Source: Burkholderia metallica (GTDB taxonomy: Bacteria > Pseudomonadota > Gammaproteobacteria > Burkholderiales > Burkholderiaceae). Taken from it: a stretch of 64,000 bases of DNA. The translations under genes were made by a program, and so were the position numbers. The stretch covers positions 434,001-498,000 of the forward strand of contig NZ_CADFDB010000001.1 of assembly GCF_902832845.1 (NCBI RefSeq), read 5' to 3'. This document shows positions 8,278-39,840 of this stretch, one piece after another. The notes beneath the pieces are model-generated. The model saw only the letters and a list, made by a program, of their open reading frames with translations, ran no database searches and was not told the origin of the DNA. Position 1 is the stretch's first letter; the number at the start of each line of letters is the position of its first letter.

Positions 8278-9339
8278 TCAGGCCGCGTCGCTCAGCGCCG
8301 GGTAGTCGGTATAGCCCGTTTCGCCTTCCGCGTAGAACGTCTCCGGCACCGGCTTGTTGAGCGGTGCGCCGAGTTCGAGGCGGCGCGGCAGGTCCGGGTT
8401 CGCGATGAACAGCTTGCCCCATGCGATCGCGTCGGCGCTGCCGCTCGCGAGCGCGGCCTGCGCGGTGTCGAACGTGAACTGTTCGTTCGCGATCAGCGGG
8501 CCGCCGAACGCTTCCTTCAGGCGCGGGCTCAAGTGGTCGCCCGAGTACGATTCACGCGTGAAGATGAACGCGATCTTGCGGCGGCCGAGTTCGCGCGCGA
8601 CATAGCCGAACGTGGCGGCCGGGTCGGAGTCGCCCATCGTGTGCGCGTCGCCGCGCGGGGCAAGGTGCACGCCGACGCGGCCGGCGCCCCACACGTCGAT
8701 CGCTGCGTCGACCACTTCGAGCAGCAGGCGCGCGCGGTTCTCGATCGGGCCGCCGTACGCATCGGTGCGGTGATTCGTGCTGTCCTGCAGGAACTGGTCG
8801 AGCAGGTAGCCGTTCGCGCCGTGAATCTCGACGCCGTCGAAGCCGGCCGCCTTCGCGTTCTCCGCTCCCTTGCGATACGCGGCGACGATGCCCGGGATTT
8901 CGTCGAGTTCGAGCGCGCGCGGCGTCACGTACGGACGCTGCGGACGCACGAGGCTCACGTGTCCGCCGGCGGCGATCGCGCTCGGCGCGACCGGCAGGTC
9001 GCCGTCCAGGAACATCGGATCGGAGATGCGGCCGACGTGCCACAGCTGCAGTACGATGCGCCCGCCGGCCGCGTGCACGGCCTGCGTCACACGCTTCCAG
9101 CCGGCTACCTGCTCGTCGGACCAGATGCCGGGCGTGTCCGCGTAGCCGACGCCCTGCGGCGTGACCGACGTCGCTTCGGTAATGATCAGCCCGGCCGTCG
9201 CGCGCTCGGCGTAGTAGCGGGCCATCAGGGCGTTCGGCACGCGCGTCGCGCCCGCGCGGGAGCGGGTGAGCGGCGCCATCACGATACGGTTCGGCAGGGT
9301 CAGTTCGCCGAGGGTAACGGGGTCGAACAACGTGGGCAT
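8278..9339 (-). CDS. nemA: Old Yellow Enzyme family alkene reductase (NemA-like)
   Basis: The start at 9339 (MPTLFDPVTLGELTLPNRIV) has AAGAGG upstream; an ATG six codons earlier lacks support. The 353-aa TIM-barrel flavoprotein shows OYE landmarks: NRIVMAPLTRSRA, the FMN/substrate-binding stretch GFDGVEIHGANGYLLDQFLQ with the His-x-x-Asn pair, the STNHRTDAYGGPIENRAR signature, and a late GSADAIAWGKLFIANPDLP phosphate-binding segment. These enzymes use NAD(P)H to reduce activated C=C bonds and nitro-esters or N-ethylmaleimide. An ArsR-family gene lies 81 bp upstream on the same strand and probably regulates it in response to electrophiles (inference). Confidence 0.93.
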   Translation of the reverse strand: MPTLFDPVTLGELTLPNRIVMAPLTRSRAGATRVPNALMARYYAERATAGLIITEATSVTPQGVGYADTPGIWSDEQVAGWKRVTQAVHAAGGRIVLQLWHVGRISDPMFLDGDLPVAPSAIAAGGHVSLVRPQRPYVTPRALELDEIPGIVAAYRKGAENAKAAGFDGVEIHGANGYLLDQFLQDSTNHRTDAYGGPIENRARLLLEVVDAAIDVWGAGRVGVHLAPRGDAHTMGDSDPAATFGYVARELGRRKIAFIFTRESYSGDHLSPRLKEAFGGPLIANEQFTFDTAQAALASGSADAIAWGKLFIANPDLPRRLELGAPLNKPVPETFYAEGETGYTDYPALSDAA

Positions 9340-9420
9340 GGCAGATAACCTCTTCACGAAAAGCGGGTGCGCGGTCGCGTCATGTGCGATGCGGGCCCGG
9401 GTGGCCGATTCGGCCGTTGG

Positions 9421-9759
9421 CTAGAGTTCGCGACGCAGCGCGTCGTGAAATGCGTCGATGACGGCCTCGTTGCGGCGAAAGAACGCCCACTGGCCGATCC
9501 GCGTCGACGTCACGAGCCCCGCGCGCTGCAGCGTCGCGAGGTGCGCGGAGACGGTCGACTGCGACAGCCCGCAGCGCGCATCGATCTGGCCCGCGCAGAC
9601 GCCGTGTTCATACGGCAGCGTCTGCGCCGGAAAATGCTCGCCCGGCGTTTTCAGCCAGTTGAGGATTTCCCGGCGCACGGGGTTCGAGAGCGCTTTCAGG
9701 ATCGCGTCGATGTCGAGTTCGGTCGGCATGGAGGGGTGGGTGGCGTTACGGTCGTGCAT
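9421..9759 (-). CDS. ArsR/SmtB family winged-helix regulator
   Basis: 112 aa (102 if translation begins at the internal Met at 9729; neither start has a strong Shine-Dalgarno). The helix-turn-helix CGLSQSTVSAHLATLQRAGLV (about residues 63-83) and the ILKALSNPVRREILNWL N-terminal helix are standard for ArsR repressors. No CxC metal motif is present, but Cys55 (GVCAGQID) and Cys63 sit near the HTH and could sense electrophiles. It lies directly upstream of the Old Yellow Enzyme gene in the same direction, the layout of redox-responsive ArsR-nemA pairs. Confidence 0.88.
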   Translation of the reverse strand: MHDRNATHPSMPTELDIDAILKALSNPVRREILNWLKTPGEHFPAQTLPYEHGVCAGQIDARCGLSQSTVSAHLATLQRAGLVTSTRIGQWAFFRRNEAVIDAFHDALRREL

Positions 9760-10308
9760 ACGGGTATCGTCGATTGGCGAATCTTATATCGGAATTTGAC
9801 GATATGATTGAAAGCATTACTGGCTATAGGGGTGATAGGTGGGGACGGACAAAAAAGATCGCACTTGTAAGAAGGGGACGGAAATGCGCAAAAAAGACTG
9901 CACCCCGGATGTCACAATGTGAAAAATCGAAGTAACTGATTGATATTAATCTACTTTATTTCCCGCTCGGTTAGGTGGGCTTGGGAGTCAGTAGGGTGGG
10001 CGAAAGTCAGCGATCGAGTAAATTGATAAGTATGTCTAAGCTAATGTGTGCGCTAAGGCGATGTGACAGGGGAAAACCATATTCTTTCAAAATTATTTCA
10101 TGTTGAAGGGGGAAGTCAACTCAACGCGAGCAGGTTGCATCCCTCGATCGATGCCTTCGTCGACTGCGAGGTCAGGTTGATCGCCGCATGCGTTGCTGGA
10201 CGTGAAAACGACGCCCGGTCGATACCCAGTGTGTGGGACTTGGCGGGCTTCAAAGTCCATAGATGACAGGCGGATGGACCGCGGCTCCTGGATCGATCGA
10301 TTGTCGTA
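9760..10308. other. Intergenic stretch without convincing genes
   Basis: Moderate-GC sequence upstream of the ArsR gene and downstream of the terpene synthase. An imperfect direct repeat is visible: GGGGACGGACAAAAAAGATCGCA at about 9842-9864 and a variant with GGGGACGGA then AAAAAAGACTGCA at about 9877-9903. A 67-codon open frame at 10063-10266 has no homology I recognise and no good ribosome site, so it is not called. Confidence 0.5.
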
Positions 10309-11307
10309 TTACACGCGTGACAGATACGCTTCCTTCATTGATTCCGTATGGTTTTCCGGCAGGTAGCGTCCCGGCAGCGCGCGGTGCCATTCGTAGTTGC
10401 CGCGCATGATCCTTTCCATCATCGCAATATACCGATCCAGTCGCTCGCGCACTTCGGCGCCCATCCCCAGGCTCGCGCACCACGCGGGCACGCCGGCCTT
10501 CAAGGTGACGAAGTCCTGGCAAAACCGTGCGACCATCCGCTGCGACTCGGCGATGGCTGCGTCGCGTCTCATCCCATGTCCGTGCGTCAACTGAATGACG
10601 ATGTTGTTGCGCTCGCCCTCGCTCTCCTCGCGCTCCAGCGACACGACGTCGTTCACGATGCAGCACACGGCAAAGCACACGAATGCCATGTCTTCCAGAT
10701 GCCCCGGCCCGAGCAATGCGGACGGGAGTTCGATGTCGTTCCCGCGTTCGCCGAGATCGAGAAACATGTGGTACGCGTAGCTTCTGACCCGCTTCTGCAG
10801 GTAGACCTGCACGTCCGGCGCCCAGACGTCGGCCGCATGTTCTTCGGTTTCTTCCAGCAAGCGCTGGAAGTAATCCTCCCAGTCCCGCAGGCAGCGCGCA
10901 CGCCATTCGGCCGACATGCCGCCCTCCTTCGCCCGCGCCCAGATATCGAGCCACGCCGCCTCCGGGCCCGACTTCGGGATCCATGTATCGGGATCGCGCA
11001 TCATGCCGATCACGCGGTTCAGGACCGGCCGAACGCGGGAAAGATCGCCGTTGTTGCGAACGCAGAAATCGTCGAAAACGGCGACCCACATCAGCGTGTC
11101 GCAAATGATCCGGTTGTCCTCGAACGGGATATTTCCCCACATCCACGCGATCGCCACGGTCAGATCCGTTTTCATCAGGCTTTGCACCGCGCTTTCGTTT
11201 CCGGCAAGGCCTTTCTCGGCCAGCCATTGCTCCTGCACGGTCAGCAGTTCCGCAAGCTGCGGATGCAGGTTCGCGGAAAACGGGACATCGAAATCAACGA
11301 TGGGCAT
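10309..11307 (-). CDS. Class I terpene synthase (sesquiterpene synthase-like)
   Basis: 332 aa, the usual length of bacterial single-domain class I terpene cyclases. The metal-binding acidic motif is VAVFDDFCVRN (Asp79-Asp80, a reduced form of DDxxD/E), and the NSE triad is intact as NDVVSLERE (Asn219, Ser223, Glu227). A diphosphate-sensor Arg is plausible at Arg173, 46 residues before the triad, and the C-terminal RY pair is Arg314-Tyr315. The enzyme should ionise a linear prenyl diphosphate with Mg2+ and cyclise or quench the cation. AGGA precedes the ATG. It lies 66 bp downstream of a cis-prenyltransferase on the same strand, so its substrate may be a Z-configured prenyl diphosphate (inference). 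The product cannot be predicted. Confidence 0.88.
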   Translation of the reverse strand: MPIVDFDVPFSANLHPQLAELLTVQEQWLAEKGLAGNESAVQSLMKTDLTVAIAWMWGNIPFEDNRIICDTLMWVAVFDDFCVRNNGDLSRVRPVLNRVIGMMRDPDTWIPKSGPEAAWLDIWARAKEGGMSAEWRARCLRDWEDYFQRLLEETEEHAADVWAPDVQVYLQKRVRSYAYHMFLDLGERGNDIELPSALLGPGHLEDMAFVCFAVCCIVNDVVSLEREESEGERNNIVIQLTHGHGMRRDAAIAESQRMVARFCQDFVTLKAGVPAWCASLGMGAEVRERLDRYIAMMERIMRGNYEWHRALPGRYLPENHTESMKEAYLSRV

Positions 11308-11373
11308 ATGGGTTCCTGATTTATTTCTGAGAGAAATGACTCATCGACCATCGAAACGCCGACAGTCCATTTC

Positions 11374-12144
11374 CTAAAGCCCGAAACGGCGATGGCGAGA
11401 ATAAAAAAAGCGAATGGCGTCGTCGAAGTCCGCGCGCCCGAATTCAGGCCAGCACACCGGCGTGAAATACAGTTCGGAAAACGAGCTTTGCCACAGCATG
11501 AAGTTCGACAGCCGCTGTTCGCCTGACGTCCGGATGACGAGATCGGGGTCGGGTTGCCCAGCCGTGTAGAGGCGGCTCGCAATCAATTCGGGACTCAGGT
11601 CGGCGAGCAACTGGTCGAGCGATCCGGCAGCGGCGTGCTCGCTGATTAGCGCCCGGATCGCGCTTAGCAATTCGAGGCGGCCACTGTACGCAACCGCGAT
11701 GTTGACTTCGAGCCCCTGAACCTGCTCGGTGCTTCGCACGGCGTCTCCGATGCGCTCCGCGACGGTCGAGGGAAGTTTCGTCAGATCACCAATCACGCGC
11801 AGCCGCCACCGGCCGCTACGGGCCAGTTCGTCGAGTACCTTGACGATCACGGTCAACAGGCCGACCAGTTCCTCGGCGTTGCGTTTCAGGTTCTCGGTGG
11901 ACAGCGGCCATAGCGTCACCATAGGAATGGCCGCAGCTTCGCACCAGGACAGCAGCGCGTGAACGTTTCTTCCACCCGCTCGATAGCCGTCGATGGTTGG
12001 CAACCCGAGGCGATCCGCCCAGCGGCGGTTGCCGTCGAGAATGACCGCGAGATGCCGGAGTGGGACGCCTTCGCTGGCGGTCGGCGTTTCGGGCGTGCCG
12101 AACGAGCAGGCGTCGGGGGCCGACAGTGCCGCAGCTTGAGTCAT
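11374..12144 (-). CDS. Cis-prenyltransferase (UppS-like isoprenyl transferase), probably dedicated to terpene synthesis
   Basis: The ATG at 12144 is preferred over a TTG at 12162 because GAGGGAG lies at proper distance before it; this gives 256 aa. Motifs: ILDGNRRWA (35-43, catalytic Asp37; canonical enzymes have MDGNGRWA), GYRAGG (GHRAG in housekeeping UppS), LSTEN, and the C-terminal DPDLVIRTSGEQRLSNF with ELYF, which carries the diphosphate- and Mg-binding residues. The family condenses isopentenyl diphosphate in cis. The divergent motif residues and the location directly upstream of a terpene synthase, away from cdsA and other cell-wall genes, argue for a short-chain secondary enzyme making for example neryl or Z,Z-farnesyl diphosphate. 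That assignment is inferred. Confidence 0.88.
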   Translation of the reverse strand: MTQAAALSAPDACSFGTPETPTASEGVPLRHLAVILDGNRRWADRLGLPTIDGYRAGGRNVHALLSWCEAAAIPMVTLWPLSTENLKRNAEELVGLLTVIVKVLDELARSGRWRLRVIGDLTKLPSTVAERIGDAVRSTEQVQGLEVNIAVAYSGRLELLSAIRALISEHAAAGSLDQLLADLSPELIASRLYTAGQPDPDLVIRTSGEQRLSNFMLWQSSFSELYFTPVCWPEFGRADFDDAIRFFYSRHRRFGL

Positions 12145-12292
12145 CGCCACTCCCTCGGTCAAGAAGTCTGTGTCGACGATGAGAGATCGTTGCGTCGACT
12201 CGATGAAACCGACAATACGTAAACGAAAAGAACCTGCGGGGAGATAGTTTATGACTCGTATTATTCATAGTTGCCCGGATTTTTCAAGTCGA

Positions 12293-12327
12293 CAAAATCA
12301 ATATTTTGTTTTTAGATAAATTGATTT
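12293..12327. promoter_or_regulatory. AT-rich dyads upstream of the terpene operon
   Basis: CAAAAT-CAAT-ATTTTG at 12293-12308 is a perfect 6-bp inverted repeat. AAATCAAT (12295-12302) also pairs with ATTGATTT (12320-12327). They sit about 150 bp upstream of the cis-prenyltransferase start in an AT-rich segment (12190-12345) unlike the rest of the window, where the operon promoter is expected. Regulator unknown. Confidence 0.35.
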
Positions 12328-12441
12328 GAATGGTTTCAATAATGGAAATTGCGGTCGCGCGGGTTGCCGGCGCTCGGCGCCGTCCGTCAATGCGGCACCG
12401 ATGAATGCTGCGGGGTCGACGATCAAACGCAACGATGCAGT

Positions 12442-12592
12442 TCAGCCATCCAGCGTCTGCGCCGGCGTGTCGAGCTTCAGTTGATAGAACGCAACATCGA
12501 GCCAGCGCCCGAACTTGAAGCCCGCTTCCGCAATCGTGCCCGAGTGCACGAACCCCAGCAGCGTCGTATCCGTGCCGCGAAGCTGGGCAAGT
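12442..12592 (-). pseudogene. C-terminal remnant of a GNAT (phosphinothricin-type) acetyltransferase
   Basis: The minus strand encodes TLLGFVHSGTIAEAGFKFGR followed by WLDVAFYQLKLDTPAQTLDG and a stop. This is the characteristic C-terminus of phosphinothricin/methionine-sulfoximine type GNATs (…GF…G…..GFKFGRWLDV..…). The N-terminal two-thirds are missing and the fragment joins IS3 transposase sequence at about 12593. It is a dead fragment. Confidence 0.7.
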
Positions 12593-12763
12593 TCATCGCT
12601 TGTAGACCGGGCGCAGGCCTTGGCGCTGCAAACTACGTCGAACACGCTCAGCACTCACCGGGCAGCCTTGGGCGCGCAATTGCCGCACGATACGGGGGCG
12701 GCCATAGCTGCCGCGACTGGCCCGGTAGATGGCCGCCACTTCGACGTTCAGTTGTTGAAGCCC
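12593..12763 (-). mobile_element. IS3-family transposase OrfB fragment
   Basis: Translated on the minus strand, this segment reads LQQLNVEVAAIYRASRGSYG followed by RPRIVRQLRAQG…VSAERVRRSLQRQGLRPVYKR and a stop at 12593-12595. This is the N-terminal HTH_21 region of IS3-group OrfB transposases (SRGTYGxPRI … VYKRR). A TAA precedes it in frame, and the DDE catalytic core is absent. It is an insertion-sequence remnant beside the terpene operon. Confidence 0.75.
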
Positions 12764-13445
12764 TTAAAAACTGCTAATCGTGTCCATAGATTACGCTAAT
12801 GTAAGGCACGGCCGCGGCCCCGCGAGATAAGGCATTGCTGCCGTTCGCGCGTCTTTTCATGCGGTGCGTTTTGGCAACGCGCGCACGCACGGATGTCCGT
12901 TTATATTGCTAAGGAACCTTATCACGACGGCATGATTGCCTGTTCAAACCCGGGTTTCGCACAACGCGTGAAACGGGCTGTCGGCGCTGCAACGGTGTGG
13001 GCGGGAGTTGGCACGGGTCTTCGCAACACCGTGGTCGGTGACAACGTTAATTCGCAACCTGCAACCTCATGAATTCACGACGGTTTCGCTCTTCATTGCC
13101 GGTGTGAGGCGGCGGAGTGACATTTTTACTTCGCAAACGGTGACAACTTTAATTTGGTCTACGGTAGGGGAGGCGACGTTGGCCAGTCAAAAATAGCACT
13201 TGACGTTCACTTTTTGCGTCATATGCTTTCCACTGGATGCGAGTAAAAGGCGTGGAAATAAGCAATCAGTTTGTCGATGATTTATCGTATTGTTTCCGTT
13301 TTTTATGGGACATACGTCGCGACACTACCTGAGATTAAATCGGCAGCATGATTGTTTCGGAAATTCCACTTGGAAATCTCCGAAACTTCCCGAACGAGCG
13401 CGACCACCTCTCAGTTCGTTATTTTTCAACCTTTGGAGAGCCGAC
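12764..13445. other. Low-coding intergenic debris
   Basis: No convincing gene. The stretch holds three GTGACA-led repeats (listed separately) resembling multi-copy ends of an insertion sequence, and AT-rich DNA from 13180 that probably contains the promoter of the small secreted protein at 13446. Confidence 0.5.
13038..13159. repeat. Three GTGACA-led terminal-type repeats
   Basis: GTGACAACGTTAATTCGCAA (13038-13057), GTGACATTTTTACTTCGCAA (13117-13136) and GTGACAACTTTAATTTGGTC (13140-13159) are related and in the same orientation. Several copies of a 20-bp motif near one another is the organisation of IS21-type element ends; no transposase gene remains. Attribution to IS21 is inference. Confidence 0.4.
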
Positions 13446-13676
13446 ATGTCATCTATTGCCAAGATCCTCTTTTTGACCTTAATGGCCTGCCTTGTTTTTA
13501 ACGGAGAAGCTGGCGCCGCTCAAAAGTCTTTCTGCTATTTCCACCACAATTGCCCCGCTGACGGAAAGCTGCCGAAAGGTCAACCGCCGGAGCAATACAC
13601 CAAACAGCAGTGCAAGAACGGTGGAGGTAAGAGCTGGGGCGACGGCCCAACGAGCTGCGAAAACGTGAACAAATGA
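13446..13676 (+). CDS. Small cysteine-containing secreted protein
   Basis: The ATG at 13446 with GGAGAG eight bases upstream gives 76 aa. Residues 1-25 form a Sec signal peptide (…LTLMACLVFNGEAGA), leaving a mature peptide of about 50 aa with four cysteines (30, 36, 56, 71) that could form two disulfides, plus a Gly/Lys-rich middle and a basic C-terminus. I do not recognise the family. The frame extends upstream to 13290, but that part lacks a ribosome site and signal. It stands alone among gene remnants. It might be a small exported toxin, inhibitor or structural peptide; nothing in the sequence decides. Confidence 0.65.
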   Translation: MSSIAKILFLTLMACLVFNGEAGAAQKSFCYFHHNCPADGKLPKGQPPEQYTKQQCKNGGGKSWGDGPTSCENVNK

Positions 13677-13898
13677 GAAGATCGGAGCCCAGCGTCAATT
13701 GAACAATGCGAGGGGTAGTTCTCGCTGCCGGATCTCCCTCTTGATTTTGTTGCGTTCTACCGGGGAAGACGGATCTCGGGCGGCAAGGTCTGCCGCTCGC
13801 CCAAATCAGAGACCGTGCGATATCGATCCCAACGGGTTCGTCTCGGCAGTCCTCAAAAACGCAATGCCACTAATAAGAATTAGCGGCATTGAATGTGC

Positions 13899-13928
13899 AT
13901 CATAAAAACCCGGCCAAAGCCGGGCTCA
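13899..13928 (-). terminator. Rho-independent terminator
   Basis: On the minus strand the sequence is AGCCCGGCTTTGGCCGGGTTTTTATG: CCCGGC and GCCGGG arms with a short loop followed by a T-run. It lies just downstream of the degenerate toxin-antitoxin gene at 13957-14210, which it would have terminated. Confidence 0.75.
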
Positions 13929-13956
13929 CGTCGCTGTGTGATGCGGCGGCCCACGC

Positions 13957-14210
13957 CTACTTGACCGTCGCCAACGGCAAAAACAACGCCAACGGGTCAT
14001 GCGTGAGGGACTGAAAACCGAAGTGGCCATAGAGAACGCCGCGGCACCCTCGTCCTTCGCGTCGACGGTCAAGGCGACGGCCGGGATTTCCGAGCTGGCC
14101 ACGCGCCGCAGGGCGTTGACCGACATGGTGCGCCCCTGGATCTCGGCGGCCCGGCGGATCACCGCCAGCACATCGGTCTCGACGCGTGCTTCAAAGCGAG
14201 TAGTAGCCAT
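13957..14210 (-). pseudogene. Collapsed TacA-TacT (DUF1778/GNAT) toxin-antitoxin remnant
   Basis: The frame begins with a perfect AGGAGGT ribosome site and MATTRFEARVETDVLAVIRR, then AAEIQGRTMSV, the ribbon-helix-helix N-terminus of DUF1778 antitoxins (TacA). It then jumps to IPAVALTVDAKDEGAAAF, which belongs to the C-terminal part of the partner GNAT toxin (TacT). A frameshift near 14034 follows; the +1 frame gives YGHFGFQSLTHDPLALFLPL then ATVK and a stop at 13957-13959. The antitoxin C-terminus and most of the toxin are therefore deleted. A Rho-independent terminator follows. No working toxin or antitoxin remains, although the DNA-binding N-terminus could still be expressed. Confidence 0.75.
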
Positions 14211-14395
14211 AGGGTGTTACCTCCTGGTGCTACTGTACGGAAAATTGCCGGGTGCACTCGCGAGGATGGAACCGGCCATTGTCAAATGCGTACATCCCGT
14301 GATTCGGCCGCCGGGGAGCGGCGCCTACGGCAGCACCCTCTGATAAGGGCAGGCGGTCGATGAGCATATCGATGCCGCCTGCGGATGCGGTTGCT

Positions 14396-15829
14396 TCATG
14401 ACGCGTCATTCGCGACAATGCGCCCCTGCCCGATGAGCGCCGTCATCGCCATCATCAGTTCGAATGCGCGGTCCGCGTTCACCGGTTGATTCTGCGTACC
14501 GAACCTCAGCACGATGACACCGTCCACCAGCGCCGCGATGAGTGTCGCGCGCGCGAGGCATTCGCGCGCGGTCGCCGACGAATCGATCTCCCGGATGAGA
14601 TCCGTGCAGACCACCCGGTACGCCGCGTAGCCCCTTCCCACGATTTCACGCGTGATATCCGAATGTTGAGCCAGAGCGAACATCTCGATCCAGAGTTGTT
14701 GCACCTCGGGAACACAGACTTCCTCGAAGACGTCTGCGGCGATGTCGCACAGGCGCTCCAGCGCCGACTTTCCGCTCGGCTTGCCGAGCTCCGCGTAGTG
14801 GTCCAGATAAGCTCGTCCCACCGCGTCAAGTGTCGAGCGCAGCAGGTCGTCATGGGTCGGGAAATAGTTCTGGAGCACCGAGGGCAGGATGCCGAGTTCT
14901 CTCGCCACCCGTGCCAGGGTGAAGTTTGCATAGCCTTCTGTCGCCAGAAGGTTGGCGGCGGTGGAGACGATCTCGTTGATCTTGAGTTCCCTGCGCTTGC
15001 CCTGGGCCGTCGGCCGGTAATGGAAGGCGTCCTGGGTCGACTGGTGCGCCCGGAGATCCAGTAGCCCGGGCTGGAGGTCCCCATTCGATCCGAAGACGCT
15101 GATCGGGGTATGGCTGCCGTCGTGAAGGACACGCGGACGACGATGTGGCGCTTCGCTCTCGAGCATCTGTGGCGACGCGCTCATCACCATTTTTACGGCT
15201 CGCTTGGCGACGCGGATCAACTCCACATAGTCTTTTCCGGGGTAATCGCCGTGGGACGCGAATATCGTCATGCCGTCCATCTGCGCGACGATCACGGCGG
15301 CACGCACCTGGCATGCGTCACTGGACAACGTCGGGTGAAGCTCCGACAGCAATTTCTCGAAGATGCCTCGATACCGCGCCTGCATGTCGCGCAGCATTTC
15401 CGCGACATAGGCTTCATGCGATGCGAAGGCCCAGATCTCGACCATGAACTTCGGTAGATCGGTCTCGTTGATGTTCTGGAAAATGCGATTGATCAGCGCG
15501 GAGCAACGTTGCGCAGCACCCATGCCCGGGCGGCTCGCGATCGCTTTGTAGTCCTCCATGACCTGGCTCAGGTAGGCCGGGAGCGCGGTGCGCAGCAACT
15601 CTTCCGTCGTTCGGAAGTAGTACTGGAGATTGCCATGGGTGATTCCCATGCGATCCGCTACACGGCGGATCGCGAACCCGGCATAGCCGTCCTCCTGAAA
15701 GACCTGGCGCGCGGTATCGATGATCTCTCGAATGCGCTGTTCGCGATTGCGCCGTGACGACGGCCGCGCGGCGGACTTGGCGCCCTCCGAATGGTCAGGG
15801 GTTTCTTCCTTGATCGCGCTGTTTTGCAC
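14396..15829 (-). CDS. Double-domain TetR family regulator (two TetR repressors in one chain)
   Basis: 477 aa, more than twice the usual 190-220 aa for TetR proteins. The start is a GTG with GGGAG seven bases upstream. The first TetR unit (about 25-215) has the HTH GFAIRRVADRMGITHGNLQYYF (51-72). The second (about 278-470) has ANFTLARVARELGILPSVLQ followed by NYF (301-323). Each HTH is followed by a helical ligand-binding-like domain; a 60-residue linker (220-280) rich in Pro, His and Arg joins them. A single chain would carry two DNA-binding heads, so it may bind as a pseudo-dimer. The frame is uninterrupted and both HTHs look intact. The target is unknown; it lies divergent from the truncated FAD oxidase at 16624. 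Confidence 0.88.
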   Translation of the reverse strand: MQNSAIKEETPDHSEGAKSAARPSSRRNREQRIREIIDTARQVFQEDGYAGFAIRRVADRMGITHGNLQYYFRTTEELLRTALPAYLSQVMEDYKAIASRPGMGAAQRCSALINRIFQNINETDLPKFMVEIWAFASHEAYVAEMLRDMQARYRGIFEKLLSELHPTLSSDACQVRAAVIVAQMDGMTIFASHGDYPGKDYVELIRVAKRAVKMVMSASPQMLESEAPHRRPRVLHDGSHTPISVFGSNGDLQPGLLDLRAHQSTQDAFHYRPTAQGKRRELKINEIVSTAANLLATEGYANFTLARVARELGILPSVLQNYFPTHDDLLRSTLDAVGRAYLDHYAELGKPSGKSALERLCDIAADVFEEVCVPEVQQLWIEMFALAQHSDITREIVGRGYAAYRVVCTDLIREIDSSATARECLARATLIAALVDGVIVLRFGTQNQPVNADRAFELMMAMTALIGQGRIVANDAS

Positions 15830-15865
15830 GTTGACGCTCCCATGGCTAATACAAGGTTTCTGTAA

Positions 15866-15878
15866 ATTATAGGCCTAT
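15866..15878 (-). promoter_or_regulatory. Promoter -10 with overlapping palindrome for the double TetR gene
   Basis: On the minus strand TATAAT (15871-15866) fits a -10 element 37 bp upstream of the GTG start. It overlaps the perfect 10-bp palindrome ATAGGCCTAT (15869-15878), a plausible autoregulatory operator. No good -35 is evident. Confidence 0.4.
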
Positions 15879-16623
15879 CCGACGGAAGGGGAAAAATGCC
15901 GCTTCTTTCCCTCCATGCTTTTGTGCGCGAGCAATGACTGGCTGAGTGCGCAACGCGCCCCTTACGTTTTTTCACTCCAGTGCATGGCGGCGTGCTGCCC
16001 GCGGCAACCTTGCGCCCCGGAACATCTTTATTGGCCCATCGTGCAATTCCGCGCCTTGCGGCATGCGAATTCGAGTCGGTTCGACATCGTTTTCCTCGTG
16101 CCCGGTCGGTGTTTTCCCTAATTTTTTCGCGCTTGAGTGTAGGCCGACGCAACGTTAATATTAGGCCGTCATAACGTACTTTAAGGGCCGACGATACGTC
16201 TCTTGGTGATCGATTCAGGCTCCGGGGCGAGGTGATGGATTTCATTCGTTGCAGAGCGGATCTGCATGCGAAAGGCGTCCCGGAGAAGTGCGAAACGCGT
16301 TCCCGGGCGGGTAGCGAACGGCAGAAAGGCGCAGGTTCTCCTTCGCTTGGACGTGCGAGCCGGCTTCAACGGATGTGCCGCGCACCATCGTCGGCGGCCG
16401 TACTCCCATCAAACCGTCGGGTGGTCTGGAGTCGAAAGACCACCCACTGGATGCGACCGGCATCGGAACGCGATGACCTCGTCACGCAGCTGCCCGGCAA
16501 CGCCGGTGTGCGTCAGGTGCAGCGTGCGCGCGCTGCGATCCAGGAAAACGGCGACGCGATGCAGCGCATGGAAGAGGCGGCAGTGGCCGTCCACATTTTG
16601 AGCAAGGATTGACGGAGTCTGAA
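15879..16623. other. Intergenic region upstream of the FAD oxidase remnant
   Basis: No credible gene. A 126-codon open frame at 16232-16612 has no recognisable homology. The stretch holds AT-rich DNA at 16130-16190, likely promoter sequence, and a strong hairpin at 16419-16445. Confidence 0.45.
16419..16445. repeat. Strong hairpin upstream of the FAD oxidase
   Basis: GGGTGGTCT (16419-16427) and AGACCACCC (16437-16445) are perfect 9-bp arms with a nine-base loop. No T-tract follows on either strand. It could be an RNA structure in a leader or an operator; it is 178 bp upstream of the ATG at 16624. Confidence 0.35.
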
Positions 16624-20872: not shown

Positions 20873-21606
20873 CTTGATGTTCTCCCGTGGACACCTCGTT
20901 GTCGTTCCGCAGGTCCGGACCGCGGCACGGCGAATGTGAACCAATTAAAGCAGATTCGAGAATAAATCAGGATCCGGGGAATCCGCTTTTTTCCATTCTT
21001 AATAATTCACGTGCTTTAGTTAAAACATGAAATTTACAACCCGCATGCGAATCGCCGGATGTTCCAGAAAGATTGTTGAGTTTTGACAAAAACTTGCCGG
21101 TTCGATGGAAAACGTTTGCGAGTCATGCCTATATTTGTCTCGCGATCACGCCGGAGGCTTGACGATCGAATATCGGGAATCAGCCAACCTGTATGCGACT
21201 CATTCGCAACCGGGTTGAATCGGGGACTGGAATTCAGTGTTTGTTTAACAGGGATGGGAGACAGGCGGGAAATGGAGTACAGCGGGAGTACAGCGTTCGG
21301 CTCGTTTGATCTGTATACGCACAGATGCCATCGATGCCGATCGACGCAACAGTTTCTCCATGAAACAGCCATATTTTAAAAAGTGGAAAATTTACCGCTC
21401 AGAGGGGATAAAAGTAAAAAGTGCCGAATAAATGATTCCGGTTGATTGATTCTTGATGGTTGCCAATCGAGTCATCTGCATTGATTTGATGGCGGGGCGG
21501 CATTTATCTAAAAATATCGAATAACGCATTCCGGTAATTCCTTTCTGCGTTTTTTAACTGCGGAAGGGGCTCGGGTCGTCGATTCTCTTTATGGGAAGGT
21601 GTGATT
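20873..21606. other. AT-rich divergent promoter region
   Basis: About 730 bp of much lower GC than its surroundings separates the iorAB-like operon from the giant autotransporter. Two overlapping 98- and 112-codon frames (21083-21379 plus, 21034-21372 minus) lack homology and good ribosome sites and are not called. The length and AT content suggest extensive regulatory sequence or silencer (H-NS-like) binding for the autotransporter. Confidence 0.5.
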
Positions 21607-24600
21607 ATGCGTATGCGCATGGGTTCGAATAAAAAGCGCGCGGAAGCACGTCCGAAACTCCTCGTCCCGACCGGCATGCTGGTCGCACTCGTCAGTGCGG
21701 GGATCGTTCCCGCCGACGCATTGGCCGCCTGCACCGGCTCGCCCACTGTCACCTGTACCGGCACCACCAACAGCTATGCGAACGGCACGAATAATCTCAA
21801 CGTGACGGTCGCATCGGGCGCGACCGTCTCGGTGGTGCCGCTGTTCGGCGGCACGGCGCTGTCGCTCACGGGCAGCGGCGTCACGCTGACCAACAACGGG
21901 ACCATCGACCCGTCGCAGGCCGGGCTGAGCATCGTTTCGAACGGCACGGTCGTCGGCAATATCACGTCCGCGAGCACGGTGAACGTCACGAACAACGGCG
22001 TGATGATGGGCTCGACCAGTTCGCTGTTCGGCAACGGGCCGGCATTGACCGTCTACAACGGCACGGGCGGCACGACGAACATCACGAACACCGGCACGAT
22101 CGGCACGACGGGCATCGGCTTCACCGCCGGTCCGACCACGCAGGTGGTCACCGCATCGGGCGGCGCGCAGGTCAACTTCACGAACGCGAGCGGCGGGGCG
22201 ATCAACGGCTCGGTCGTGCTTGCACCGAGCACCTTGGTGGGCACCGGCAATACCTTCACCAATGCCGGAAGCATTACCGGCAACGTATCGCTGGGCGCGG
22301 GCCTCGGCACGTCGAACACGTTCAACGCGCAGACCGGGTCGTCGGTCGGGCTCGGCGTCGATGCCGGGCTGGGCGGCAACAACACGCTGAATCTGCAGCA
22401 GAACACGTCCGGCGGGGCGGCGAACGGCGCCATCGCGGTCGACACGTTCGGCAATTTCACGCATCTCGCGGTCCAGGGCGGCACGTGGAACATCACGGGC
22501 GCGTCGACCGCGTCGGACGCGTCGCTCACCGGCGGTACCGCGATCATCAACAACAGCGGCTCGCTGGGCACCGGGACGATCGCAGTGAGCGGCGGCCGGC
22601 TGGAGGCCGGGTCCGCCGGCGTGAACCTCCAGAACAACGTGGCGCTCGGTGCGGCGCTGACGGTCGACGGCGCAACCGGGTTCGGGATCTCGGGCGCGAT
22701 TTCGGGCGGCGGCGCACTGAATGCGGCCGGCACCGGCACGCTGGCGCTGAACGGTGCGAATTCCTTCTCGGGCGGAACGAATCTGACGGGCGGCGGCGGG
22801 CTGCTCGTCGGTACCGGCCTGGCGCTCGGGTCCGGCGCGCTGAACGTCACGGGCGCGGGCGGGACGCTCGCGACGAGCGTCGGCGGCACGCTGCTCGGCA
22901 ACGCGGTGAACATCGACAGTGGCGTCACGCTGGGCCTCAACAGTTCGGCGAACCTGGGCCTGGGCGGCGTGATCGGCGGCAACGGCGGTCTGGCGCAAAC
23001 CGGCAGCGGTACGACGACGCTGCTCGGCCTGAACACATTTACGGGCGGCATGAACCTGAGCGGCGGCGGACTCGTCGCCGGCAACGGCCAGGCGCTCGGG
23101 ACCGGCGCACTGCATGTGTCCGGCGCGGGCGGCTCGCTGGCGGTGAACGCCGGCGGCACGCTGCTCGGCAACGCGGTGAACCTCGATGCGGGTGCGACGC
23201 TCGGCCTGAACGGCGCGGCCGGCATGAGCCTGGGTGGCGTGATCGGCGGCAACGGCGGTCTGGCGCAAACCGGCAGCGGCACGACGACGCTGCTCGGCGC
23301 GAACACGTTCTCGGGCGGTACGGCGCTGAGCGGCGGCGGACTCGTCGCCGGCAACGGCAGCGCACTCGGGACTGGCGCGCTGCATGTGTCGGGCACGGGC
23401 GGCGCGCTGGCGGTGAACGCCGACGGCACGCTGCTCGGCAATGCGGTGAATCTCGATGCGGGCGCGACGCTCGGCCTGAACGGTACGGCCGGCATGAGCC
23501 TGGGCGGTGTGATCTCGGGCAACGGCGGCCTCGCGCAAACCGGCACGGGTACGACGACGCTGCTCGGTGTGAACGCGTTCACGGGCGGCACGACGCTCGG
23601 TGCCGGCGGCCTGATTGCGGGCAACGGGCACGCACTGGGCAGCGGCGCACTGAACGTCGTCGGCGCGGGCGGCACGCTCGCCACGAACGTTGCCGGCACC
23701 GTGCTCGGCAATGCGGTGAACCTCGGTGCAGGCGCGACGCTCGGCCTGAACGGCGCGGCCGATCTTGGCCTGGGCGGCACGATCTCGGGCGCGGGCGGCC
23801 TCGCGCTCGGCGGCACCGGCGCGACGACGCTGTCCGGTGCGAACACGTTCAGCGGCGGCGCGAGCCTCACGGGCGGCGGCAGCCTGATCGTCGACGGCAA
23901 CTCGGCGCTCGGCGTGGGCGGTGCGTTGAACGTGAGCGGCCTCGGCGGCTCGCTGCACGCGGGTGCGGCAGGCGCGACACTCGTGAATTCGATCAACCTG
24001 AACGGCACGTCGCTGACGCTGGACGGGGCGAACGATCTCGGCCTGGGCGGGGTGATCGGCGGCACCGGCGGTCTCGTGCTGAACGGCACGGGCACGACCA
24101 CGCTGTCCGGCGCGAACACCTTCGGCGGCGGCACGACGCTGAGCGCCGGCACGCTGCTCGCCGGCAACAATCTGGCGCTGGGTACGGGCGCGCTCAATGT
24201 CGCCGGCGCGGGCGGCGCACTCGGCGCGAGCGCGAGCGGCGTCGCGTTGAACAATGCGGTCAATCTCGGCACGGGTGCGACGCTCGCGCTCACCGGTTCG
24301 AACGATCTTGGCCTGGGCGGCGTGATCGCCGGTGACGGCGGCCTCGCGCAAGTCGGCTCGGGCATCACGACGCTGCTGGGGGCGAACACGTTCACGGGCG
24401 GTACGACGCTGAGCGGCGGCGGCATTCTCGCCGGCAACGGCGCCGCACTGGGCACGGGTGCGCTGAACGTGACCGGTGCGGGCGGCTCGCTCGGCACGAC
24501 CGTCGGCGGCACGGTGCTCGGCAATGCGATCCAGCTCGGCGCGGGCGCGGCACTGACGGTTGGCGGTGCGAACGATCTCGGGCTGGGCGGGATCATTTCC

Positions 24601-27600
24601 GGCGCCGGCGGCCTGTCCGTGAACGGCCCGGGCACGACGACGCTCACCGCGGCCGAGACGTTCACCGGCGGCACCACGATCGGCAGCGGCACGCTCGCGA
24701 TCGGCGCGGGCGGCAGCCTCGCCGCGTCGAGCCCCGTCAACCTGGCGGGCGCCGGTGCGCAGTTCAACATCGCCGGGGCGACCACGCCGCAGTCGATCGG
24801 CACGCTGTCGGGTGTCGCGGGTTCGACGATCGATCTCGGTTCGAACCACCTGACGCTGGCAGGCAGCGGTAGCGGCGTCTTCGCGGGCAACATCGGCGGG
24901 GCGGGCGGGCTCACGCTTTCCGGCACCGGCTCGCAGGCACTCACCGGCAACAACACGTACGCGGGCGGCACGGCGCTGACGGGCGGCGACCTGATCGTCG
25001 GCAGCGGCGCGGCGCTTGGCCTCGGCACACTCGACGTCAACGGCTCGGCGTCGCTCGGCGCCAGCGTGCCGGGCGTGACGATCGGCAACGCGGTCAATCT
25101 CGGCGCCGGCGTCACGCTCGGGTTGAACGGCGCGAACGATCTCGGCCTGAGCGGCACGATCGCCGGCAACGGCGGTCTCGCGCAAACGGGCACGGGCACG
25201 GGCACGACGACGCTCACCGGCACGAACACGTACACGGGCGGCACGACGCTGAGTGGCGGCGGGCTCATCGCGGGCAACGGCAGCGCACTCGGCGCGGGCG
25301 CGCTGAACGTGACCGGCGCGGGCGGCACGCTCGCCACGAACGTCGCCGGCACCGTGCTCGGCAATGCGGTGAACCTCGGCGCCGGCGCGACGCTGGGGCT
25401 GAACGGTTCGGCGGACCTGAGCCTCGGCGGGGTGCTGTCGGGTGGCGGCGGTCTGGCGCAAACCGGCACCGGCACGACGACGCTGCTCGGCGCGAACACG
25501 TACACGGGCGGTACGACGCTCAGCGGCGGCGGACTCATCGCCGGCAACGGCAGCGCACTCGGCACCGGCGCGCTGAACGTAACGGGCGCGGGCGGCTCGC
25601 TCGGCACGAGCGTCGGCGGCACCGTGCTCGGCAATGCGGTGAATCTGGGCGCGGGCGCGACGCTGACGGTCGGTGGTGCGAACAACCTCGGCCTCGGCGG
25701 CGCGATTTCGGGCGGCGGCAATCTGTCGGTGACCGGCCCGTCGATCACGACGCTCACGGGAGCGGGCCGCTACACCGGCAACACGACGATCGGCAACGGC
25801 AGCACGCTGGCGGTCGGCGCGGGCGGCAGCCTGTCGGGCGGCAGCTTGTTCGACCTGACTGGCGTGGGCGCGACGCTCGACCTGAGCGCGGCGACGTCGC
25901 CGCAGACGACGGGCGGGCTGGTCGGCACGGCCGGCTCGGCCGTGAACCTCGGCGGCAATACGCTGACGCTCGGCGGCGCCGGCAACGGCACGTTCGGCGG
26001 CACGATCGGCGGGGCGGGCGGGCTGACGCTGGCCGGCACCGGCACGGAAACGCTGATTGGTGCGAACACGTACACGGGCGGCACGACGATCAACAGCGGC
26101 ACGCTGGCGATCGGCGCGGGCGGCAGCCTCGCGGCGGGCGGCGCAGTGAATCTGGGCGGCGCCGGCGCGGCGTTCGACCTGAGCGGCGCGGCGCTGCCGC
26201 AGACGATCGGCACGCTGTCGGGCGTGGCCGGTTCGACGGTGAATCTCGGCGGCAACGGCCTGACGCTGGGCGGCGCAGGCAGCGGCACGTTCGGCGGCAC
26301 GATCGCCGGGGCCGGCGGCAGCCTGACGCTGTCGGGCACGGGTACCGAAACGCTGAATGGTGCGAACAGCTACACGGGCGGCACGAGCCTGACCGGCGGC
26401 GGCACGCTGCTCGCCGGCAACGGTGCGGCACTCGGCACGGGCGCGCTGAACATCGGCGGTGCAGGCGGCACGCTGGCCGCGAGCGTTGCCGGCACGACGC
26501 TGAACAACGCGGTGAATCTCGGCACCGGTTCGGCACTGACGCTCGGCGGCACGAACGACCTGGGCCTCGGCGGCATCATCGGCGGCGGCGGCAGTCTCGC
26601 GCAAACCGGCAGCGGAACGACCGCGCTCACCGGCGCGAACACGTTCACGGGCGGCACGACGCTGAGCGCGGGCGGCCTGTCGGTCGGCAGCAACACGGCG
26701 CTCGGCACGGGCACGCTCAACGTGACCGGCAGCGGCGGCGCGCTCAGCGCGAGCACGGCGAACCTCCTGCTGGCGAACGCCGTCGATCTGGGCATCGGCT
26801 CGACGCTGAATCTCGGCGGTGCATTCGACTTCGGGCTGAACGGCATGATTTCCGGTGCAGGCGGCGTGGTGCAGTCCGGCTCGGGCACGACCACGCTCGG
26901 CGGCGCGAATACCTACGGCGGCGGCACGACGCTGAGCAGCGGCGGACTGAGCGTGGGCAGCAATTCGGCGCTGGGCACCGGCGCACTGAACGTGACCGGC
27001 AACGGCACGCTGAACGCGAGCGTGAGCGGCACGACGCTCGGCAACGCAGTGAACCTCGGCGCGGGTGCGACGCTCGGGCTGAACGGTTCGAACGATCTTG
27101 GCCTGAGCGGTACGATTTCCGGTAGCGGCGCCCTGGCGCAGACCGGCGCGGGCACCACGACGCTCACCGGCACGAACACCTATGACGGCGGCACCACGTT
27201 GAGCGGTGGCGGGCTCATCGCCGGCAACGGCAGCGCACTCGGTTCCGGCGCGCTGAACGTCACGGGCGCGGGCGGCTCGCTCGGCACGAGCGTCGGCGGC
27301 ACGACGCTCGGCAATACGGTGAATCTCGGCGCGGGTTCGACGCTGACGGTTGGCGGTGCGAACGATCTCGGGCTGGGCGGCGGGATCTCGGGCAGCGGCG
27401 GTCTGTCGGTCAGCGGCCCGTCGACGACCACGCTCACGGGCGTGAACACCTATACCGGCAACACGACGATCGGCGGCGGCAGCACGCTGGCGGTCGGCGC
27501 GGGCGGCAGCCTGTCGTCGGGCAGCGCGCTCGACCTCGCCGGCACGGGCGCGACGCTCGACATCAGCGCGGCGACCACGCCGCAGACGAGCGGCATGCTG

Positions 27601-39754: not shown

Positions 39755-39840
39755 TCGATCGGCGCGCGGAGGCGCATCGCACCGTCAATGCCGGGTTCGC
39801 GCATCGTGCGCGAGCCGACTTATGTTCGCGGAGTGCTTTC

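What the first reader, a model, noticed from the sequence alone, without database searches (positions are those of the whole stretch)
10309..12144. Two-gene terpene operon: cis-prenyltransferase plus class I terpene synthase with a reduced Asp motif
Seen: a UppS-like enzyme and a class I terpene synthase 66 bp apart on one strand. The synthase keeps the NSE triad (219-227) but its Asp-rich motif is DDFCVRN, only two acidic residues. The prenyltransferase has GNRRW and GYRAG where housekeeping UppS has GNGRW and GHRAG. Known: most terpene synthases use all-trans precursors. Inference: this pair makes and cyclises a Z-prenyl diphosphate, possibly a novel scaffold.
Basis: partly seen in the sequence, partly recalled or inferred. 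Interest (0 to 1): 0.75.

Follow-up and report, generated by a model that had tools for sequence, protein, structure and literature searches.

The report
Bacterial Z-terpene operon: prenyltransferase plus cyclase
A Burkholderia genome carries a two-gene unit that probably builds an unusual (cis) terpene precursor and folds it into a ring compound; similar pairs, one of them fused into a single protein, turn up in other bacteria, which points to a little-studied route to new natural products.

Summary
A cis-prenyltransferase gene (cPT, 11374-12144) lies 66 bp upstream of a class I terpene synthase gene (TS, 10309-11307). Both ORFs are intact, and the genome has a separate UppS. The cPT's best-scoring solved relative is the C15 Z-FPP synthase Rv1086; GNRRW and GYR are also found there, so they are not peculiarities.

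The case for coupling is comparative. The same genome has a second pair, a 71%-identical cPT with a different cyclase, present in 7 of 64 other species of the genus. Further pairs occur in Rhizobium etli, Streptomyces clavuligerus and Streptomyces JCM17656; Streptomyces YIM 121038 has a P450-cPT-TS unit and a TS-cPT fusion protein. Partner cyclases come from at least two clades. None of 80 mostly actinobacterial GNRRW-type cPT loci had a TS in the DNA held.

Best reading: the cPT makes a short Z-prenyl diphosphate, most likely (2Z,6E)-FPP, and the TS cyclises it. The reduced Asp motif is real, but published active synthases have similar ones, so it does not indicate a Z substrate. Chain length, geometry and product are untested. 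I found no paper on bacterial cPT-TS pairs, but the S. clavuligerus cPT already has PDB entries.

The parts
11374..12144 (-). cis-prenyltransferase (cPT1), 256 aa, resembling short-chain Z-isoprenyl diphosphate synthases; first gene of the operon
   Evidence: ORF and translation; PF01255 E 9.4e-68; best PDB match Rv1086 (2vg1) E 3.5e-62, ahead of E. coli UppS 4.3e-44; 4-column gap (net 3 residues) against the genome's own UppS
10309..11307 (-). class I terpene synthase (TS1), 332 aa, with reduced Asp motif DDFCVRN and intact NSE triad; second gene of the operon
   Evidence: ORF and translation; PF19086 E 2e-29; motif residues; nearest solved chains avermitilol and pentalenene synthase
11308..11373 (-). 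66-bp intergenic spacer carrying a Shine-Dalgarno-like AGGA before the TS start
   Evidence: the eight second-type Burkholderia pairs have spacers of 52-54 bp

Best explanation
A two-step pathway for a Z-configured terpene. The cPT adds one isopentenyl unit in cis to a short all-trans primer (GPP, or less likely FPP or DMAPP) and releases a short Z-prenyl diphosphate, most likely (2Z,6E)-FPP. The adjacent class I synthase binds this product through D79/D80, the NSE triad and R173, ionises it, and cyclises it directly, without first isomerising an all-E substrate. Shown: both genes, their motifs, their order, the separate UppS, the recurrence of the pairing, and a fusion. Inferred: co-transcription, short chain length, Z geometry, substrate transfer and the product.
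For: 1. The cPT's best-scoring solved relatives are Rv1086 (E 3.5e-62) and the TS-linked S. clavuligerus cPT 8wu7 (2.2e-51), both ahead of UppS. It has a 4-column gap, net 3 residues, against the genome's UppS; that such a gap goes with short products is recalled. 2. A separate UppS lies between frr-like and other genes typical of its locus, beside a pyrH-like gene (neighbours recognised by sequence look). 3. A second pair in the same genome has a 71%-identical cPT and a TS sharing only 22% with TS1. It is present in 7 of the 64 other genomes of the genus examined, with spacers of 52-54 bp in all eight and median dN/dS 0.213 for the cPT and 0.188 for the TS over 28 pairs each (three of eight TS frames untrimmed at the start). 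4. Further pairs: R. etli, S. clavuligerus with a P450 gene next to it, Streptomyces JCM17656 and Streptomyces YIM 121038 as P450-cPT-TS. 5. In YIM 121038 TS and cPT are also fused in one 543-aa ORF that overlaps an upstream trans-prenyl synthase gene. 6. The linked TSs are not one clade: 4 label changes on the tree, at least 3 forced by starred branches (12 linked rows of 5 kinds, without the later-found JCM17656 and second YIM synthases). 7. Of 80 GNRRW-type cPT loci of genome contigs, 0 had a TS hit in the DNA held (59 of the 80 loci are 10 kb or longer).
Against: There is no enzyme data. The position that I align with E. coli UppS A69 (numbering recalled) is proline, not the Leu or Met of 80 of 80 genome contigs cPTs, so chain length could differ. 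TS1's nearest tree neighbour, in another species of the genus, has no cPT in the 12.7 kb held around it, although that genome has a cPT2-TS2 pair elsewhere. The nearest characterised relatives of the linked TSs are named as ordinary sesquiterpene synthases. TS1 was found in 1 of 398 family genomes as more than a 28% match, so its own conservation cannot be tested. Most plasmid cPT regions looked at, 10 of 12, had no TS hit. Of 35 Streptomyces genomes, the one with a second strong cPT match had no TS by it.
Confidence: 0.72

Rival explanations
1. The TS uses an ordinary all-E substrate. The cPT serves another purpose, such as a Z-prenyl lipid carrier or a back-up for UppS, and the pair shares only regulation.
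For: The nearest solved synthases (avermitilol, pentalenene) are, as recalled, all-E FPP enzymes. A TS1-like gene in another species has no cPT beside it. GNRRW-type cPTs also occur without any TS nearby (80 of 80 loci; 10 of 12 plasmid regions), so they have other uses.
Against: Repeated pairing with cyclases of at least two clades, the TS-cPT fusion, a separate UppS, and the short-chain likeness of the cPT.
Confidence: 0.15
2. Same serial scheme but with another chain length or geometry: the cPT makes neryl diphosphate (C10), (2Z,6Z)-FPP or a Z-GGPP (C20), and the TS makes a mono- or diterpene or an all-Z sesquiterpene.
For: Pro at the chain-length position instead of Leu/Met. Rv1086 is reported to accept NPP as well as GPP (PMC10303002, passages). 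Tomato pairs of this kind use NPP and NNPP (PMC4364678, passages).
Against: The best-scoring solved relative is a C15 synthase, and the nearest named relatives of the TS are sesquiterpene synthases.
Confidence: 0.25
3. The TS is degenerate or inactive, and the reduced Asp motif marks decay.
For: No acid at +3 to +5 of the Asp motif, against 36 of 38 comparison synthases. PMC10509563 suspects pseudogenisation in a branch of synthases with deviating motifs (passage).
Against: Intact ORF, NSE triad, R173 and RY pair. Active enzymes with DDHRN and DDFIV are reported. The second cyclase type lacks the acid too, yet is under purifying selection.
Confidence: 0.08

Closest known systems
Rv1086, short-chain Z-isoprenyl ((2Z,6E)-farnesyl) diphosphate synthase of Mycobacterium tuberculosis (PDB 2vg1, 2vfw)
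   Same: Best-scoring solved relative of the cPT; shares DGNRRW, a Tyr in GYR, and STENL
   Different: Pro instead of Leu at the aligned chain-length position; here in an operon with a cyclase; product not measured
S. clavuligerus cPT (PDB 8wu7, 8ylz) and its neighbouring terpene synthase
   Same: Same two-gene order, cPT then TS; identical to the PDB chain over 272 of 272 residues
   Different: Long, unsure branch in the cPT tree; a P450 gene adjoins; function in print unknown to me, its paper was not found
Tomato chromosome 8 cluster (NDPS1/CPT2 with TPS19, TPS20, TPS21)
   Same: cis-prenyltransferase genes clustered with terpene synthases that use their Z products (PMC4364678, passages)
   Different: Plant genes, not an operon; relatedness to the bacterial pairs was not tested beyond PDB scores (NDPS1 7vpc E 4.9e-43)
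Pentalenene, isoafricanol and avermitilol synthases
   Same: Nearest named families and solved chains of TS1
   Different: TS1 scores 134 bits against cut-offs of 675 and 500; Asp motif reduced; no cPT within 4 kb of the one pentalenene synthase gene looked at, L228

Membership tests
cis-prenyltransferase (PF01255) | Full-length match over the curated cut-off | tested here: met
   228.5 bits against 27, profile positions 1-219 of 219
Short-chain Z-FPP synthase (Rv1086 type) | Best-scoring solved relative is a short-chain Z synthase | tested here: met
   2vg1 E 3.5e-62; next 8wu7 2.2e-51; UppS 4.3e-44
Short-chain Z-FPP synthase (Rv1086 type) | Bulky residue at the chain-length position (recalled: UppS A69, Rv1086 L84) | tested here: inconclusive
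   Pro in the window cPT; Leu or Met in 80 of 80 genome contigs cPTs, Ala in 22 of 22 genus UppS loci
Short-chain Z-FPP synthase (Rv1086 type) | C15 product with Z geometry from GPP and IPP | not testable with these tools
   Needs an enzyme assay
Housekeeping UppS | GNGRW-type motif and place beside frr/pyrH | tested here: not met
   GNRRW; the genome's UppS is at C5:234687-235388 beside frr- and pyrH-like ORFs; 22 of 22 UppS-type genus loci have Gly at that position
Class I terpene synthase (PF19086) | Profile match over the curated cut-off | tested here: met
   103.2 bits against 23.7
Class I terpene synthase (PF19086) | NSE triad, with pyrophosphate-sensor Arg and RY pair | tested here: met
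   N219, S223, R226, E227, R173, R314-Y315
Class I terpene synthase (PF19086) | Canonical DDxxD/DDxxxE with a third acid (usual, not strictly required) | tested here: not met
   DDFCVRNNG; 36 of 38 comparison synthases have the acid, 0 of 9 C-terminal domains of geosmin-type two-domain ORFs have it; active enzymes without it are reported (PMC10509563, passages). I therefore call it a class I TS with a variant motif
Pentalenene synthase or isoafricanol synthase (NCBIfam equivalogs) | Score over the equivalog cut-off | tested here: not met
   134.3 against 675 and 134.3 against 500
Cyclolavandulyl diphosphate synthase | Irregular coupling activity | not testable with these tools
   Only sequence distance was seen, best E 1.6e-17

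The most novel reading that the evidence does not exclude
Bacteria have a mobile Z-terpene module. A short-chain cis-prenyltransferase has been paired repeatedly with unrelated class I cyclases (in operons, with P450s, or fused in one protein), and those cyclases have become Z-specific by convergence. A set of bacterial terpenes would then be missed whenever synthases are tested with all-E substrates only. The window pair would be a fresh case of partner exchange within one genome: one cPT lineage, two cyclase lineages.
Probability: 0.55. Interest if true: 0.78.

Novelty: new variant of a known kind. Interest (0 to 1): 0.62.

Why it matters
Bacterial terpene synthases are commonly screened with all-E GPP, FPP and GGPP, and some give nothing: PMC7192455 lists several without product, including one it calls BpTPS, from Burkholderia in its table (passages; I did not test whether BpTPS is related to the cyclases here). 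If some cyclases need a Z substrate made by a neighbouring gene annotated uppS, they would look dead in such screens and their scaffolds would be missed. The pairs found here, with a natural TS-cPT fusion, give a simple and testable rule: look for a second, GNRRW-type 'uppS' beside a terpene synthase. The function is not yet shown, and the S. clavuligerus cPT has already been crystallised, so part of this may be known to specialists.

Tried and rejected
Rejected as diagnostic: the H-to-Y change in GYRAG. In the first set it looked clean: Tyr in 11 of 12 TS-linked cPTs (Leu in the other) against His in 80 of 80 genome contigs cPTs and 22 of 22 UppS-type rows. In 13 further plasmid cPTs, both TS-linked ones (L229, L232) keep His, and four unlinked ones (second copy in L230, L237, L238, L240) have Tyr.

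Rejected as evidence of Z specificity: the reduced Asp motif. It is reduced in the window TS1, in the 8 TS2 rows and in S. clavuligerus, but not in R. etli (DEHFCE) or the YIM fusion (DDQAD). JCM17656 has DEAYD by my reading, and in the second YIM TS I see no clear motif (not scored). One of the 38 comparison rows, L120_t2, is a second TS in the S. clavuligerus locus, about 1.5 kb from the cPT on the other strand, so 'unlinked' is arguable for it.

Rejected: that the OYE and ArsR genes next to the TS (8278-9759) belong to the operon. They lie in backbone shared with one B. cenocepacia record, and 549 bp separate ArsR from the TS.

Led nowhere: the fusion elsewhere (1 of 396 genomes of the actinobacterial phylum matched P0009 at E<=1e-50, over the cPT part); specialised cPTs elsewhere in the window's phylum (398 sampled; the 21 loci other than the window's own have no TS hit); a TS beside the extra cPT of G847 (none). 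The species could not be named: no Burkholderia record was among the 80 loci kept from the genome scan, which may leave out near relatives. A pattern scan for promoters was no better than shuffles. No tRNA gene was found in the window.

Not done: a structure model (tool switched off). Paper searches; none listed a paper that I recognised as describing a bacterial cPT-TS pair. Lists were capped at 15 to 40 titles and only open-licence papers are held. Papers seen only as passages: PMC13109686, PMC7192455, PMC7839719, PMC10303002, PMC10509563, PMC6604706, PMC4364678, PMC11574762, PMC10563020; the rest as listings.

Full report
WHAT IS THERE. On the minus strand the window holds a cis-prenyltransferase gene (12144 to 11374, 256 aa from ATG) and, 66 bp downstream, a terpene synthase gene (11307 to 10309, 332 aa). 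Both have Shine-Dalgarno-like sequence (my reading). Pfam gives PF01255 (E 9.4e-68) and PF19086 (E 2e-29), both over their cut-offs. The TS has D79-D80 followed by FCVRN, N219/S223/R226/E227, R173 and R314-Y315.

THE cPT. Its best-scoring solved relatives are Rv1086 (2vg1, E 3.5e-62) and 8wu7 (2.2e-51); E. coli UppS scores 4.3e-44. Against the genome's own UppS, the nine specialised Burkholderia cPTs have a 4-column gap, net 3 residues. The genome has its own UppS at C5:234687-235388, beside pyrH- and frr-like ORFs. At the position that I align with A69 of E. coli UppS (recalled numbering), 10 of 12 TS-linked cPTs have Pro, one Ala and one Leu; 80 of 80 genome contigs cPTs have Leu or Met; 22 of 22 UppS-type genus loci have Ala. 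The two TS-linked cPTs found later have Pro (L229) and Leu (L232) there. The exact chain length stays open. Rv1086 is reported to make Z,E-FPP from GPP and also to use NPP (PMC10303002, passages).

THE TS. Nearest solved chains are avermitilol and pentalenene synthases (E 1.8e-32 and, for 1ps1, 2.2e-31). Scores of 134 bits against equivalog cut-offs of 675 and 500 forbid a product name. The third acid of the Asp motif is missing; 36 of 38 comparison synthases have it, and 0 of 9 C-terminal domains of two-domain, geosmin-type ORFs do ('geosmin-type' is recalled). Active bacterial enzymes with DDHRN and DDFIV are published (PMC10509563, passages), so the motif is a variant and not a sign of a Z substrate.

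A SECOND PAIR IN THE SAME GENOME. At C1:310485-312182 another cPT (71% identical) is followed by another TS. That TS shares 22% with the window TS, and its top named family is selinadiene synthase (128.5 bits against a cut-off of 450). Of 65 genomes of the genus examined, 8, own included, carry a cPT at 69% identity or more to the window cPT; all nine such cPTs (two here, seven elsewhere) have a TS directly downstream. The eight second-type pairs have spacers of 52-54 bp. Median dN/dS is 0.213 for the cPT and 0.188 for the TS over 28 pairwise comparisons each (three of the eight TS frames were not trimmed to their start). The window TS itself had no close relative: 3 of 398 family genomes matched at E<=1e-8, own included, the other two at 28% and 26% identity.

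PAIRS ELSEWHERE. R. etli Mim1 plasmid: cPT 67% identical to the window cPT, then a TS 31% identical to TS2. S. clavuligerus plasmids: cPT, TS, and a P450 gene on the other strand; that cPT is identical over 272 residues to PDB 8wu7 and 8ylz. Streptomyces YIM 121038: a 543-aa ORF with PF19086 in its N-terminal and PF01255 in its C-terminal part, overlapping a trans-prenyl synthase gene upstream; and, elsewhere on the same plasmid, P450-cPT-TS. Streptomyces JCM17656 plasmid: cPT, TS, FAD oxidoreductase. The last two were found among 12 plasmid cPT regions fetched of 60 matching records; the other 10 regions had no TS hit, and 48 records were not looked at in that round, apart from the R. etli and S. 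clavuligerus ones seen before. The plasmid list holds many S. clavuligerus strains; I count them as one pair.

CONTROLS. Among 80 cPT loci of genome contigs, the best matches to the Burkholderia cPTs (78 with actinobacterial titles, 2 titled uncultured bacterium), none has a TS hit in the DNA held; 59 of them are 10 kb or longer, the shortest 3.5 kb. Among 30 TS loci taken from the matches in 50 actinobacterial genomes, none has a cPT within the up to 1.5 kb held on each side. In a sample of 398 genomes of the window's phylum, the 21 matching loci other than the window's own have no TS hit. So the pairing is not a general feature of either family. The TS profile was built from six sequences, five of them cPT-linked, so very different cyclases could be missed.

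TREES. The window cPT groups with the R. etli cPT (92/83, not starred) inside the Burkholderia-Rhizobium cPTs; the S. clavuligerus and YIM cPTs sit on long branches of unsure place (46 rows). Linked cyclases fall in at least two places: TS2 with R. etli (100/99), and the window TS, YIM fusion and S. clavuligerus within a pentalenene/isoafricanol-like group (the group name is my reading). The label 'linked' needs four changes, at least three forced (50 rows; JCM17656 and the second YIM TS were not in it). The nearest neighbour of the window TS is a TS of another species of the genus (99/84) with no cPT hit in the 12.7 kb around it. cPT lineage and cyclase lineage have therefore been recombined, which I read as partner exchange.

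ORIGIN. The operon lies in a low-GC segment (9839-16300, 58.1%, against 67.8% to its left and 69.6% from there to 39820). Against 18 kb of one B. cenocepacia record the match runs to 9838 and resumes at 39820; window 17903-25000 matches another replicon record of B. cenocepacia. This fits horizontal gain but does not prove it.

HOW IT MOST LIKELY WORKS. Trans-prenyl synthesis supplies GPP (inferred; a trans-prenyl synthase gene overlaps the YIM fusion gene). The cPT adds one IPP in cis to give (2Z,6E)-FPP. The TS ionises it with Mg2+ held by D79/D80 and the NSE triad, and closes a ring that all-E FPP reaches only after isomerisation (general terpene chemistry, recalled). I put serial action on some Z-prenyl diphosphate at 0.72. 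The rivals do not sum with this to one, since the chain-length rival shares the serial scheme.

NOVELTY. Clustered cPT and TPS genes are known in tomato (PMC4364678, passages). Ten paper searches listed no bacterial cPT-TS pair that I recognised, but the library holds open-licence papers only and the paper behind 8wu7 was not found in it. I rate it a new variant of a known kind.

Noticed in passing
window 14396-15829 (-): A 477-aa protein that holds two TetR-type repressors in tandem (two TetR_N and two TetR_C_6 stretches), inside the same low-GC segment as the operon.
   Followed up: partly
window 21601-34317 (+): A single ORF of 4238 aa with passenger-associated-transport repeats (PATR), autotransporter-like.
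   Followed up: no
window 8278-9759 (-): Old-yellow-enzyme-type oxidoreductase (8278-9357) with an ArsR-family regulator (9421-9759) downstream of the terpene operon; part of backbone shared with one B. cenocepacia record and not of the operon.
   Followed up: partly
L005 / L227 (own genome C5:463107-463688): A third terpene synthase of this genome, with a complete DDLFVD motif and no cPT hit in the 8 kb held around it.
   Followed up: partly
L230 (Streptomyces sp. NBC_01456 plasmid): A trans-prenyl synthase gene overlapping a cPT gene, then a protein that looks kinase-like to me, and a second cPT on the other strand; no TS hit. Possibly another use of short Z-prenyl diphosphates.
   Followed up: partly
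L234 and L239 (Streptomyces anulatus plasmids): A GNRRW-type cPT followed within 30 bp by a small hydrophobic-looking protein of unknown family (224-227 aa); candidate for a non-classical partner.
   Followed up: no
L215, L218-L224: The second Burkholderia pair is flanked in all eight species by an MFS-transporter-like gene (474 aa) upstream of the cPT and a 403-404-aa gene downstream of the TS; both recognised by sequence look only.
   Followed up: no
L120 4382-5635 (S. clavuligerus plasmid): A second terpene synthase on the opposite strand about 1.5 kb upstream of the cPT of the S. clavuligerus pair.
   Followed up: no
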